Of a stretch of DNA of 13,938 nt, positions 4,069-13,518 are shown piece after piece. The stretch is from positions 3,154,743 to 3,168,680 of the forward strand of contig CP070688.1 of NCBI GenBank assembly GCA_020353135.1. Direction: 5' to 3'. Position 1 is the first letter of the stretch; each line of letters begins with the position of its first letter. Both the position numbers and the translations under genes were made by a program. This stretch comes from Chloroflexota bacterium (lineage in GTDB: Bacteria > Chloroflexota > Anaerolineae > Promineifilales > Promineifilaceae). The notes beneath the pieces were generated by a model. That model was not told the origin of the DNA. It did not search any database and was given only the letters and a program-made list of their open reading frames with translations.

Positions 4069-4887
4069 ATGGACTCACCTTCGCCAGGTAATTCTTCCAC
4101 CCCGGCCGCTGCTGGTCGCTCTATCACCTTAGCGGCCGTAATTCTAACCTACAACGAGGCCCGGCACATCGCCGAATGCGTCGACAGTTTACGCTGGGCC
4201 GACCAGGTTGTTGTCTTCGATTCATTCAGCGAAGACGAGACGATCGAACTAGCTCGCCAGGCGGGCGCGGCCATTGGCCAGGCGACGTTCGAGAATTACG
4301 CCCAGCAGCGCAATGCCGCCCTGGATTTTGTGGCCTCAGGCGGGGACCGCCTCGTGGGCGTCGACTGGGTGTTTTTTGTAGACGCCGACGAAAGAGGAAC
4401 AGTTGAGCTTGGGGATGAGATTCGCCAGGTCACTGAACAACGGCCGGAAGCGGGCTGGTTTGTCCCCCGCCACAATTACATTTTTGGCCGCCTAACCACC
4501 GGCGCCGGCTGGTACCCGGACTATCAATTGCGTTTACTGAGACTTGGCAAGGCCAATTACGAGCGGCCGGTGCACGAGGTGGCCGTCGTCGAGGGCGACA
4601 TTGGTTACTTACGAAATGCCCTGGTCCATTACAACTACGACGACCCGGCCCATTTTCATGCCAAGCAACAGAAGTACACCGATTACGACGCTACAATACT
4701 CAAACAGCAGGGCATCAGGCCCAAAGCTTACACCCCGTATTCGCAGGCGTTGCGGCAATTCTGGTGGCGGTTCGGTTCCCTCAAGGGCTATCGAGATGGC
4801 CCGCACGGTTTTCGCCTGAGCGTTTACCTGGCCTATTATGAGTGGCTGAAGTATCGACGACTCGCAGCCCTCTGGCGAACTACCTAA
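4069..4887 (+). CDS. Family 2 glycosyltransferase (WaaE/KdtX-like)
   Basis: Second GT-A glycosyltransferase, 272 residues, from the subgroup that includes LPS-core beta-glucosyltransferases such as WaaE. After a Ser/Pro/Ala-rich stretch of about 20 residues comes AAVILTYNEARHI (22-34), VVVFDSFSEDET (47-58), a Q-R-N-A-A region (80-84), DWVFFVDADE (99-108) with the metal-binding DAD, GWYPDYQLRLLR (147-158), and RPVHE (166-170), which are typical of this subgroup. The aromatic/basic C-terminus (FWWRFGSLKGYRDG, then a Tyr-rich helix to WLKYRR) usually lies at the membrane surface. The N-terminal extension has no good alternative start inside it, and no Shine-Dalgarno is seen, so translation may be coupled to the upstream gene 15 bases away. 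The gene is the last plus-strand one and converges on the next gene with 54 bases between. Substrates are unknown. Confidence 0.9.
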   Translation: MDSPSPGNSSTPAAAGRSITLAAVILTYNEARHIAECVDSLRWADQVVVFDSFSEDETIELARQAGAAIGQATFENYAQQRNAALDFVASGGDRLVGVDWVFFVDADERGTVELGDEIRQVTEQRPEAGWFVPRHNYIFGRLTTGAGWYPDYQLRLLRLGKANYERPVHEVAVVEGDIGYLRNALVHYNYDDPAHFHAKQQKYTDYDATILKQQGIRPKAYTPYSQALRQFWWRFGSLKGYRDGPHGFRLSVYLAYYEWLKYRRLAALWRTT

Positions 4888-4941
4888 TCTGGGTCGGTCC
4901 AGAACAGGGCCTCAAATTGGCCGGCCGTATTCGCCGATGAA

Positions 4942-5184
4942 TCAAACCAGCTGAGTTTCACGCCCGCCGTCCCGCAGCAACTCCCAGGTCATCGTGTCCG
5001 GGCGCAGCCGGATCCGCCGGACGCCGCCTTCAGGAAACATGATCAGCACATGCCGGCCGAGATGGTCCTGCCACTGTCGCCCCTGTTCGACGGTCAGCCA
5101 ACGGCCGTCGAAAAAAATGCGCCGGACCTTCAGCGTTCCATCGGCCTCAAACTGGCAATCTACCCCGATCTGACTATCTGGCAT
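4942..5184 (-). CDS. Small conserved-looking hypothetical protein, 80 residues
   Basis: I do not recognise the family. The start at 5184 is chosen because AGGAGA lies 7 bases upstream of its ATG; a GTG at 5202 in the same frame has no such site. The protein is soluble, with no signal or membrane segment. It alternates short hydrophobic strands and turns: VDCQFEADGTLKVRRIFFDG, WLTVEQGRQWQDHLGRHVLI, then VRRIRLRPDTMTWELLRDG. This suggests a compact beta-rich domain with Trp residues at 29, 38 and 67. There is one Cys, at 10. The good ribosome binding site, normal codon composition and dense pattern of D-G-R-W type motifs argue that it is a real gene. It lies downstream of the twin-hairpin array and would be read from the same strand as the membrane glycosyltransferase, but there are 285 bases between them. 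Confidence 0.65.
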   Translation of the reverse strand: MPDSQIGVDCQFEADGTLKVRRIFFDGRWLTVEQGRQWQDHLGRHVLIMFPEGGVRRIRLRPDTMTWELLRDGGRETQLV

Positions 5185-5191
5185 TAGAACT

Positions 5192-5197
5192 TCTCCT
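5192..5197 (-). promoter_or_regulatory. Ribosome binding site deciding the start of the 80-residue protein
   Basis: AGGAGA on the minus strand with 7 bases to the ATG ending at 5184. It fixes the start six codons inside the longest open frame. Confidence 0.7.
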
Positions 5198-5221
5198 GCC
5201 ACCCGAACCCCAAAATAGTTG

Positions 5222-5469
5222 GCTGATTTTGCAAATCAGCGGCGAAATACAATTTCGCCTCTTCTGCTAGCCAATTTTGCAAATCAGTGCTGATTCTACG
5301 AATCAGCGGTGAAATGCAATTTCGCCTCTACTGTTGGCTGATTTTGCAAATCAGCGGCGAAATGCAATATCGCATCTACTGCTGACTGATTTTGCTATCA
5401 GCGGTGAAATGCAATTTCGCCTCTACTGTTGGCTGAATTTGCAATTCAGCGGTGAAATGCAATTTCACC
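5222..5469. repeat. Tandem array of twin hairpins, 48-bp period, with compensatory changes
   Basis: Each 48-bp unit has hairpin a (consensus GCTGATTTTGCAAATCAGC, 8-bp stem, TGC loop), directly followed by hairpin b (GGCGAAATGCAATTTCGCC, 8-bp stem, GCA loop) and a 10-base spacer near TCTACTGTTG. Hairpin a copies: 5222-5240, a degenerate half copy around 5270-5287, 5289-5307, 5337-5355, ~5385-5402 (one base lost, stem of 5), 5432-5450. Hairpin b copies: 5241-5259, 5308-5326, 5356-5374 (two mismatches), 5403-5421, 5451-5469. Stem changes are paired: closing T-A to C-G in the copy at 5289, T-A to A-T in the copy at 5432, and in hairpin b a C-G to T.G to T-A series. The array begins at the stop codon of the glycosyltransferase gene and ends 37 bases before the start of the 80-residue gene. 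There are no unique spacers, so it is not CRISPR. Confidence 0.93.
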
Positions 5470-6828
5470 CTACCCCAAACTCAACGCCGGTACAATGAAG
5501 CGAAACAGGGCCAGTAGATCCAGAGCGACCAGGGCTGAAGCCAATCCCAGTGGTAGCAGGTAGGCCGTTTCCGGACGCCGCTTCCGTAACGGACGCAGCA
5601 GCACAGTCCAGGCGATGGCCACGGCAATGCCTATCGGCACCAATGCCGAGAACAAGTACCGACCCTGGTGCTGCACGAAAGTCAGGTTGTAACTCAAGTA
5701 AACGAGCAAACTCATGGCGAATGTGCCGCCCAATATGAGCAGCGCGCCCAGCCACCAGGATGGACGGGACGATTCGTCGTCATCCAGCCGACTGCGCCGG
5801 AGCGCCAGCCAGGCCAGGCCGCCCAGGGTGAGCATAGTGAAGAGCAGCAGCGGCCGGTAAACCCAGGCCGGCATCACGACGCCCATCCAGCCGAATTGGC
5901 CCCAGAAACTCTGGAACGTCGTCTGCAAGAAAGCCCGAAGCGTGCCGACCAGGCCGCGCTCGGCGATCCACTCGGCCGTCCTCGGCTGGCCAACCACCAC
6001 TGCATTGTGAGCGACCGTGCCCAAGACATCCAGGCCGCCGTAGACAGACAGGTTGCGGATCCACCAGCCCAGTCCGATTAGAAATGATATGCCAAAGGCC
6101 AGCAGCCCAGCCAGCGCCAGATCGCGCCACCGTCCCCAATACCGCCACAGCAGGACGGCCGCCGCCACCGGGGCCAGCATGTAGACGGTCACTTTGGTCA
6201 GGAAACCCAGGCCGAGTAGCACGCCTATCAGAAACCGCAAGCCAAAATCAACGCTCCCTCCCCCTTCGGCTTGCTCATTTGAGCGACCGGTGGCGATGGC
6301 GACCAAAACCAGCACGATGGCCGCGATTAAGAGCTCGGCCAGGCTATCGTTATTAACGGCGGCCATCATAGCCACATGCTGGGGCAAAAAGGCGACGAAG
6401 GCGGCCGCGGTCAAGGCCAGCCAGTTTCGGCCTGGAAAAAGGCGCCTGGCGACCACATACGTCAACAAGACCACGCCGGCGCCCAGAAGCACAGAAACCA
6501 GCCGTAACGCCTGCAGCCGGCCATCGGTCAGCCGGAAGACCGGTGTTTGCAGGAGATAATAGAGCGGCGGTTGATAATCCTCATACGAAAAGGGAACGAC
6601 CGAATAGCGAGGATCAAAACGCGTGGAAATAACTTCGCTTTGGTAGATCTGGGCGTAGTCGCCGGGCTCGATTACCGGCATCCGGCCGGCGGCCAGTTGC
6701 CGAATGTAGTTGTAGTGAGCCGGCTCGTCGGGCGCCTGCCAGTCCGGTGTGTAAATGGCGTAAAGGCCGGCCACAACCAGATAAACGAACAACAGTACGA
6801 CCACAGGCGCCAGGCGTCGCATATTCAC
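5470..6828 (-). CDS. GT-C type membrane glycosyltransferase (PMT/ArnT or DUF2142-like)
   Basis: Polytopic membrane protein of 452 residues, likely transferring a sugar from a polyprenyl-phosphate carrier on the outer face of the membrane. The first helix (~8-25) is followed by a loop with DEPAHYNYIRQL (34-45), whose acidic pair is the expected catalytic position of GT-C enzymes; then comes YQPPLYYLLQTP (85-96), a common motif of the PMT/GT39-like group. Around ten further hydrophobic segments follow. Near the C-terminus VQHQGRYLFSALVPIG resembles DUF2142 and related families. The start may be the GTG at 6828 or the ATG at 6822; no Shine-Dalgarno separates them. The stop codon abuts the twin-hairpin array. 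metG ends 137 bases upstream. The donor and acceptor are unknown; participation in envelope or S-layer glycan synthesis, like the two family 2 enzymes nearby, is inferred. Confidence 0.85.
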   Translation of the reverse strand: MNMRRLAPVVVLLFVYLVVAGLYAIYTPDWQAPDEPAHYNYIRQLAAGRMPVIEPGDYAQIYQSEVISTRFDPRYSVVPFSYEDYQPPLYYLLQTPVFRLTDGRLQALRLVSVLLGAGVVLLTYVVARRLFPGRNWLALTAAAFVAFLPQHVAMMAAVNNDSLAELLIAAIVLVLVAIATGRSNEQAEGGGSVDFGLRFLIGVLLGLGFLTKVTVYMLAPVAAAVLLWRYWGRWRDLALAGLLAFGISFLIGLGWWIRNLSVYGGLDVLGTVAHNAVVVGQPRTAEWIAERGLVGTLRAFLQTTFQSFWGQFGWMGVVMPAWVYRPLLLFTMLTLGGLAWLALRRSRLDDDESSRPSWWLGALLILGGTFAMSLLVYLSYNLTFVQHQGRYLFSALVPIGIAVAIAWTVLLRPLRKRRPETAYLLPLGLASALVALDLLALFRFIVPALSLG

Positions 6829-13486: not shown

Positions 13487-13518
13487 AAAAAAAGGCCACT
13501 GGACCGGGTCCAGTGGCT
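13487..13518 (-). terminator. Strong intrinsic terminator of rplI
   Basis: GCCACTGGA (13495-13503) pairs perfectly with TCCAGTGGC (13509-13517) around CCGGG, and the minus strand continues directly into seven T residues (complement of 13487-13493). This ends the rplI transcript 65 bases after its stop codon and leaves only about 20 bases to the rodZ start, so rodZ either depends on read-through or has a promoter overlapping the terminator. Confidence 0.92.

What the first reader, a model, noticed from the sequence alone, without database searches (positions are those of the whole stretch)
5222..5469. Twin-hairpin tandem array with covarying stems
Five 48-bp units each hold two directly adjacent perfect or near-perfect hairpins with 3-base loops (TGC, then GCA). 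Sequence differences between units fall in pairs that restore the stem: GCTGATTT/AAATCAGC, GCTGATTC/GAATCAGC, GCTGAATT/AATTCAGC, and GGCGAAAT/ATTTCGCC to GGTGAAAT/ATTTCACC. The structure therefore looks selected or is actively renewed, rather than the letters. Possibilities: a structured non-coding RNA, a repeat element of the REP/MITE type carried in the genome, a protein-binding array, or a stacked RNA 3'-end protection device.
Basis: partly seen in the sequence, partly recalled or inferred. Interest (0 to 1): 0.75.

Follow-up and report, generated by a model that had tools for sequence, protein, structure and literature searches.

The report
Tandem REP hairpin array, Chloroflexota bacterium
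The strange double-hairpin repeat is most likely a small cluster of REP elements, short palindromes that bacteria carry between genes and that a dedicated transposase is thought to copy around; it is a known kind of element, here in a poorly studied bacterial phylum.

Summary
The array is real: five twin-hairpin units (one 47 nt) plus a degenerate orphan hairpin, window 5218-5474, far above chance. It is best explained as a tandem cluster of GTAG-tagged repetitive extragenic palindromes (REPs) in head-to-head pairs (a BIME). The same architecture is dispersed, often in dozens of copies, in related Chloroflexota genomes: 13 of 22 match at E<=0.001 (15 at E<=0.05), against 0 of 18 more distant genomes at E<=0.001. 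In relatives such pairs flank genes of the REP-associated tyrosine transposase (RAYT); 7 of the 8 RAYTs of one supported clade have them. Stem changes are compensatory across genomes (10 of 16 pairs); inside the window the case is weaker (3 double changes, 4 broken cells of 79). The array fills a spacer between two co-oriented genes; five relatives with this gene order show no such array. Its outer GTAG overlaps the upstream gene's stop codon. The window's own genome is not held, so dispersal there and its own RAYT could not be tested. A new member of a known kind, of modest interest.

The parts
5218..5474 (.). Whole array: tandem cluster of head-to-head GTAG-type REP pairs, including the outer feet
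   Evidence: model R1 hits on all five units, (the five units were among the 15 rows of the model, so this is by construction)
5222..5269 (+). Unit 1: hairpin A 5222-5240 with foot GTTG 5218-5221; hairpin B 5241-5259, whose foot position reads GAAG on the minus strand; linker 5260-5269
5270..5288 (+). Orphan degenerate hairpin A (two mismatched pairs)
5289..5336 (+). Unit 2: hairpin A 5289-5307 (loop TAC); hairpin B 5308-5326 (one G-U pair), GTAG on the minus strand at 5331-5328
5337..5384 (+). Unit 3: hairpin A 5337-5355, foot GTTG 5333-5336; hairpin B 5356-5374 (two mismatches), GTAG on the minus strand at 5379-5376
5385..5431 (+). Unit 4 (47 nt): hairpin A 5385-5402 with 1-nt deletion and mismatches, foot GCTG 5381-5384; hairpin B 5403-5421 (one G-U pair), GTAG on the minus strand at 5426-5423
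5432..5469 (+). Unit 5: hairpin A 5432-5450 (compensated GCTGAATT/AATTCAGC), foot GTTG 5428-5431; hairpin B 5451-5469 (compensated GGTGAAAT/ATTTCACC)
5470..5473 (-). Outer GTAG foot of unit 5 on the minus strand; overlaps the TAG stop codon (5472-5470) of the PMT-like gene
5470..6828 (-). Neighbour upstream in the direction of transcription: membrane glycosyltransferase-like gene (PMT_2 / DUF2142)
4942..5184 (-). Downstream neighbour: small conserved ORF. The ATG at 5184 (behind AGGAG) fits the starts of relatives better than the GTG at 5202 that the ORF listing gives (inferred)

Best explanation
The array is a tandem cluster of GTAG-tagged REP elements in head-to-head pairs (a BIME). Each hairpin (8-bp stem, 3-nt loop) is one REP; the two hairpins of a unit are inverted partners whose tetranucleotide feet point outwards (GTAG in 4 of 5 B halves, GTTG in 3 of 5 A halves). 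Shown: the anatomy, dispersed relatives, RAYT linkage in relatives, and absence of such an array from the same spacer in relatives. Inferred: a RAYT (an HUH single-strand transposase) of the window's own genome recognised foot plus hairpin on single-stranded DNA and put a pair into the spacer behind the PMT-like gene, and the pair was then multiplied in tandem by RAYT action or by slippage or recombination. Stem changes stay paired because only foldable copies are recognised and copied; once in place, copies decay, as unit 4 and the orphan hairpin suggest. The cluster should be transcribed within the MetRS-PMT-small ORF run and fold in RNA, with possible effects on mRNA stability (inferred, untested).
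For: (1) Covariance model R1, built from 15 elements (5 window units plus 10 from the genomes G003, G017 and G021), matches in 15 of 22 related genomes at E<=0.05 and 13 of 22 at E<=0.001. Genomes that gave no training element hold many hits: G020 133, G018 121, G005 117, G015 112, G013 89 (hits on both strands, so about half as many places; at most 150 candidates scored per genome). 0 of 18 more distant genomes match at E<=0.001. In a sample of 120 genomes of the class, under stricter filters, 11 match at E<=1e-6, one of them (G138) with 49 hits, as many as were scored. (2) The foot: of 54 half-elements in 27 places (three short matches left out), 35 have GTAG, 5 GTGG, 1 GTTG, and 13 were not called by the script (the model was itself built from elements rich in GTAG). 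(3) RAYT linkage: the protein of L135 (same gene as L212, G018) passes NCBIfam NF047646 (84.3 bits, cut-off 80) and resembles TnpA_REP of PDB 4er8 (E 8e-6), with hairpins AACGATTTGGTAAATCGTT on both sides, foot GTAG in two copies and GTAA in others. G020 (L227) has hairpins and pairs directly before the start and behind the stop of its RAYT, two pairs in tandem, with the window's core GATTTTGCAAATC. G116 (L259) has four tandem pairs behind its RAYT and GTAG hairpins before it. (4) 8 of 60 RAYT loci (two of the 60 are one gene) have an R1 hit at E<=0.001 in their flanks; in a tree of 59 of them 7 of those 8 sit in one clade of 8 with support 100/99, and 0 of 500 label shuffles cluster as tightly. 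(5) Compensatory changes. (6) Spacer without array in relatives. (7) Tandem arrays of such pairs occur elsewhere: 9.1 copies of a 102-bp unit in G021.
Against: The window's own genome is not held, so copy number and a cognate RAYT there are unknown; no Y1_Tnp match was seen among the ten window proteins scanned (not every ORF was scanned). The exact window variant (32-nt pattern, up to 3 mismatches) is in 0 of 396 genomes of the class sample, and 109 of 120 class genomes have no R1 match at E<=1e-6. The nearest relative by MetRS, G001, has no R1 match and no RAYT match, though it is only 3.0 Mb. G006, G010 and G014 have RAYT matches but no R1 match. G021 filled all 150 scored candidates, but its one RAYT match (L207) is outside the linked clade and has no R1 hit. 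A-half feet in the window are GTTG; in one studied REPtron, changes at the last two positions of GTAG severely reduced cutting (PMC8266576, passage). L228 is outside the clade, and its pair is one-sided with another ORF between it and the RAYT. L229 in the clade has the layout but no R1 hit. The R1 hits at L253, L257 and L258 are weak (best E 1e-5, 5e-4, 4e-4). L214 and L227 share a neighbouring gene, so they may be one inherited insertion rather than two independent cases.
Confidence: 0.88

Rival explanations
1. A MITE of an ordinary transposon: a small element with terminal inverted repeats that happens to fold into two hairpins.
For: In G138 the same kind of REP pair sits inside a longer inverted repeat of about 100 bp in the nine stretches read, and the genome has 49 scored matches; in G021 the pair has longer palindromic edges.
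Against: In the window no longer inverted repeat was noticed around the units (by eye); GTAG feet and RAYT linkage fit REPs. Target-site duplications were not tested.
Confidence: 0.06
2. A local structured RNA or cis-regulator of the MetRS-PMT-small ORF run (mRNA stabiliser, attenuator or terminator) kept for its function.
For: It lies between co-oriented genes and folds as RNA on the minus strand (z -6.5). One of three terminator-like hits in 4850-5700 lies in it, at 5240-5222 on the minus strand (3 found, 1.0 expected in shuffles).
Against: Five relatives with the same gene order have no such array; no Rfam match at gathering scores, only sub-threshold microRNA models; units decay (unit 4, orphan hairpin); similar pairs lie at many places in relatives. 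It may still act this way as a side effect.
Confidence: 0.04
3. A protein-binding array (for example for a nucleoid protein or gyrase) selected at this place.
For: Tandem palindromes are typical binding layouts (recalled); REPs and BIMEs are reported as binding sites for several proteins (start of the abstract of PMC2817692, seen in the listing).
Against: No evidence for a ligand here; the dispersed, RAYT-linked distribution in relatives is explained without one.
Confidence: 0.02

Closest known systems
GTAG-tagged REP superfamily (Di Nocera et al. 2013, PMC3733652: abstract and passages seen)
   Same: Short stem-loops with an unpaired GTAG at one end; head-to-head dimers; some dimers with only 1-5 bp between partners; homo- and heterodimers; clusters of dimers repeated in tandem; mostly intergenic. 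Chloroflexi are named there among the phyla with GTAG repeats.
   Different: The passages seen name T. roseum GTAG-23, but I saw no family with this GATTT/GAAAT core (Figure 1 and the supplements were not seen). Here the spacer is 0 nt and one half carries GTTG.
BIME arrays (REP plus inverted REP in tandem) of E. coli (PMC8266576, passages seen)
   Same: Inverted pairs in consecutive tandem copies, GTAG feet, a RAYT (TnpA_REP) as proposed mobiliser.
   Different: E. coli REPs are imperfect palindromes with a bulge; here most stems are perfect 8-mers with a 3-nt loop.
Stenotrophomonas REPtron Sm (PMC8266576, passages seen)
   Same: REP of 16 nt perfect palindrome interrupted by 3 nt and directly preceded by GTAG: the same geometry as the window's hairpins. 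GTAG mutants are still bound but cut poorly.
   Different: Different host phylum and RAYT; its stem sequence was not compared.
REPINs (Pseudomonas; PMC3116915, seen only in the listings)
   Same: Two inverted REPs as the mobile unit (recalled).
   Different: There the unit is thought to fold as one long hairpin (recalled); in the window halves A and B have diverged and each folds on itself.
REP-like palindromes listed by RepRanger for Chloroflexota (PMC12306157, passages seen)
   Same: Its Table 3 lists counts of such sequences for Dehalococcoides mccartyi, Anaerolinea thermolimosa and Ardenticatena maritima, so REP-like palindromes are already reported in this phylum and class.
   Different: In the passages seen there is no family, pair structure or RAYT linkage for these species.

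Membership tests
GTAG-type REP | Stem of 7-20 fully paired nt with a loop of 2-5 nt (rule given in PMC6006769, passage) | tested here: met
   8-bp stems with 3-nt loops; six of the ten unit hairpins are perfect; 2B and 4B have one G-U pair, and 3B, 4A and the orphan have mismatches
GTAG-type REP | GTAG or GTGG tetranucleotide 0-2 nt 5' of the hairpin | tested here: inconclusive
   Met in 4 of 5 B halves (GTAG, 0-1 nt away); not met in A halves (GTTG in 3 of 5). In relatives 40 of 54 halves have GTAG or GTGG
GTAG-type REP | Many dispersed copies in the genome | not testable with these tools
   Own genome not held. Met in several relatives
GTAG-type REP | Intergenic location | tested here: met
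   Between the PMT-like gene and the small ORF; only its outer GTAG touches the stop codon
GTAG-type REP | Cognate RAYT flanked by the same REP | tested here: inconclusive
   Not testable in the window's genome; in relatives 8 of 60 RAYT loci have an R1 hit at E<=0.001 in their flanks, 7 of them in one clade
BIME | REPs in alternating orientation, regularly spaced, in tandem | tested here: met
   Five A/B pairs at 48 nt, with one pair of 47 nt and one orphan half
MITE | Terminal inverted repeats and target-site duplication | not tested
   No exact empty site was found; the relatives with this gene order are too diverged
Rfam RNA family | Match at gathering score | tested here: not met
   0 matches in the window

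The most novel reading that the evidence does not exclude
The window belongs to a distinct class of REP in Chloroflexota: zero- to short-spacer head-to-head heterodimers (a GATTT half and a GAAAT half, feet GTTG and GTAG) mobilised as a unit by one deep RAYT clade, with stems that drift together with the RAYT but stay paired. The window array would be a case in which such a unit landed on a stop codon, supplied it, and then expanded inside an operon.
Probability: 0.3. Interest if true: 0.45.

Novelty: new member of a known kind. Interest (0 to 1): 0.3.

Why it matters
It explains an odd-looking covarying array as a REP cluster, and shows that RAYT-linked, head-to-head REP pairs are abundant in several uncultured Chloroflexota. 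A full-text search for 'repetitive extragenic palindrom' together with 'Anaerolineae' found no paper, but REP-like palindromes are already reported for the phylum, including Anaerolinea and Ardenticatena, so only the pair family and its RAYT clade would be new. A RAYT clade with its matching REPs, whose stems vary while pairing is kept, is a natural data set for how this transposase recognises its hairpins.

Tried and rejected
Rfam search: only sub-threshold microRNA models, taken as chance. Plain DNA search of 20 relatives' genomes with the array (19 of 20 with a match at E<=1): by eye mostly chance-level hits, but two (L107, L083) were twin hairpins and gave the lead. Pattern search (13 of 20 genomes with a match, 3 mismatches allowed) was one base too short in the loop, so its counts are not used; its loci still showed REP pairs. 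A search for the exact window variant was empty in 396 genomes. Rho-independent terminator: one hit inside the array. The first tree (30 rows) warned of long branches that meet; the larger tree was used; one of 60 rows (L265, 21.9 bits) was dropped there, and two rows (L264, L272) are identical because they are one gene. The script called no foot in 13 of 54 halves, some because the stem is imperfect or the foot reads GTAA or GTAC. L188 was left out because it holds a training element. RAYT counts depend on NF047646 at E<=1e-5 and on the 30 loci returned per call (30, 30; both calls list more matches without loci); the proteins of L119 and L139 fall just under the NF047646 cut-off (78.7 and 79.9 against 80). 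The 11 genomes were chosen because they had R1 matches.

Full report
What is there. The window is most likely from a Chloroflexota bacterium: its methionyl-tRNA synthetase is nearest (80% identity) to that of the Chloroflexi MAG UBA11865 (L001), and the gene order from RodZ to the second glycosyltransferase is kept in L001 and L002 (RimO and thioredoxin in that stretch are my names, by eye). The array lies at 5218-5474 between two genes read on the minus strand: a PMT_2/DUF2142 membrane protein (5470-6828) and a small ORF (4942-5202; start more likely the ATG at 5184, behind AGGAG, as in relatives). It has five units of hairpin A (19 nt), hairpin B (19 nt) and a 10-nt linker, with one 1-nt deletion (unit 4) and one orphan, mismatched hairpin A between units 1 and 2.

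More than chance. The two hairpin patterns have 7 and 6 matches (5 distinct places each) against about 0.01 expected in shuffles. Folded as single-stranded DNA the array has z = -10.4, as RNA on the minus strand z = -6.5. The covariation within the window is modest: 3 double changes, 2 one-sided changes to G-U, and 4 broken of 79 cells.

What it is. A plain DNA search of 20 relatives' genomes looked near chance except for two twin hairpins of the form GTAGG-stem-loop-stem / stem-loop-stem-CTAC. Ten such elements from three genomes (G003, G017, G021) with the five window units gave an alignment with 97.1% paired cells and 10 of 16 pairs changed on both sides; sliding the partner by 1-3 columns drops pairing to 30-52%. 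A covariance model (R1) matched in 15 of 22 related genomes at E<=0.05 and in 13 at E<=0.001, with dozens of hits in eight of them (both strands counted, 150 candidates scored at most). It matched in 11 of 120 genomes of a class sample at E<=1e-6 under stricter filters and in 0 of 18 more distant genomes at E<=0.001 (11 of other phyla and 7 Chloroflexota, by record titles). So these are dispersed repeats in part of the class, and in G021 they also form tandem arrays (9.1 copies of 102 bp).

The foot and the halves. In 27 places the tetranucleotide before the hairpin was GTAG in 35, GTGG in 5, GTTG in 1 and not called in 13 of 54 halves. In the window, read 5' to 3' into each hairpin, B halves have GTAG in 4 of 5 (minus strand) and A halves GTTG in 3 of 5. 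Both feet point outwards: head-to-head pairs in the terms of Di Nocera et al. 2013 (PMC3733652, abstract and passages seen), who describe GTAG palindromes, dimers 1-5 bp apart, heterodimers and tandem clusters, and name Chloroflexi among the phyla. The window's halves differ (GATTT/AAATC in A; GAAAT/ATTTC in B read from its own foot), with the stem paired in both. The same pairing of a GATTT half with a GAAAT half is seen in the nine stretches read from G138, and a GGATT half with a GGAAT half beside the RAYT of G116.

The transposase. RAYTs are HUH transposases reported to be flanked by inverted REPs (PMC2817692, abstract and passages) and to bind and cut REP DNA with a role of the GTAG (PMC8266576, passages). 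In relatives, NF047646 matched at E<=1e-5 in 18 of 22 genomes (15 over the cut-off) and in 11 of 11 genomes chosen for their R1 matches (8 over the cut-off). R1 hits at E<=0.001 lie in the flanks of 4 of 30 loci of the first set (L212, L214, L227, L228) and 4 of 30 of the second (L253, L257, L258, L259; three of these weak; two further loci, L271 and L268, only at E 0.01-0.08, not counted). In L227 the hairpins sit directly before the likely start and behind the stop of the RAYT (start inferred by likeness to L214 and L135). L135 (the same gene as L212) passes the NF047646 cut-off and resembles TnpA_REP of PDB 4er8. In a tree of 59 RAYTs, 7 of the 8 R1-flanked ones fall in one clade of 8 (support 100/99); the eighth member, L229, has the same layout with another stem sequence; label shuffles reach this clustering in 0 of 500. 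L214 and L227 share a neighbouring gene, so they may not be independent. Of the 22 genomes, the four without a RAYT match (G001, G002, G004, G019) are all among the seven without an R1 match, but the other three of those seven (G006, G010, G014) do have RAYT matches, and genome size and completeness confound this.

The place. Five relatives keep PMT, small ORF and GT2 in order. In L011, L002 and L015 the spacer is about 24, 50 and 121 nt (counted by eye), in L001 it is short but holds Ns, and L068 has a 2-kb stretch with other ORFs; none of the five has an R1 match at E<=1. These relatives are too diverged to show an exact empty site. In the window 285 nt lie between the PMT stop and the ATG. 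The outer GTAG of unit 5 (5473-5470, minus strand) contains the PMT stop codon TAG, so the insertion seems to have landed on the gene's end and now supplies the stop (inferred).

How it works. Most likely a RAYT of this genome (not seen) recognised foot plus hairpin on single-stranded DNA and inserted a REP pair, which then expanded in tandem. Pairing is kept because unpaired copies are not recognised; decayed copies in the array (unit 4, orphan) fit a lack of strict local selection. Effects on the message of this gene run are plausible and untested.

Limits. The window's genome is not held; the exact variant is absent from 396 class genomes; G021 has many copies, but its one RAYT match is outside the linked clade; the window's A halves carry GTTG. 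These keep the confidence below certainty.

Noticed in passing
G138 loci L235-L243: 49 scored matches of a REP heterodimer; in the nine stretches read it is nested in a longer MITE-like inverted repeat of about 100 nt. The two RAYT loci of this genome (L252, L260) show no R1 hit.
   Followed up: partly
L230, L231 (G021): 102-bp tandem arrays of REP pairs whose linker carries an AGGAGTTCCCC(A/C)TG stretch that in some copies looks like a ribosome site and start codon.
   Followed up: no
L218 (G012) 2012-2541: A RAYT followed by an array, spacing about 68, alternating two other hairpins (CGCGGTTGGGAAACCGCG and CGCGAATTCCATTCGCG).
   Followed up: no
L217, L223, L224, L225: Other RAYT genes flanked by quite different palindromes, such as AGATTGGTCCAATCT and AACCTCCCGGAGGTT.
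   Followed up: no
L214 (G022), L227 (G020): Two RAYTs of the linked clade sit beside the same gene, which by eye looks like part of a type I restriction-modification locus (named from recall).
   Followed up: no
L139 (G003): A RAYT-like gene between an ORF that looks like a reverse transcriptase and one that looks like Cas1 (both named from recall, not tested), flanked by GGGAATTGGAATTCCC palindromes.
   Followed up: no
window 13495-13517: A perfect 10-bp hairpin GCCACTGGACCGGGTCCAGTGGC just upstream of the RodZ-like gene.
   Followed up: no
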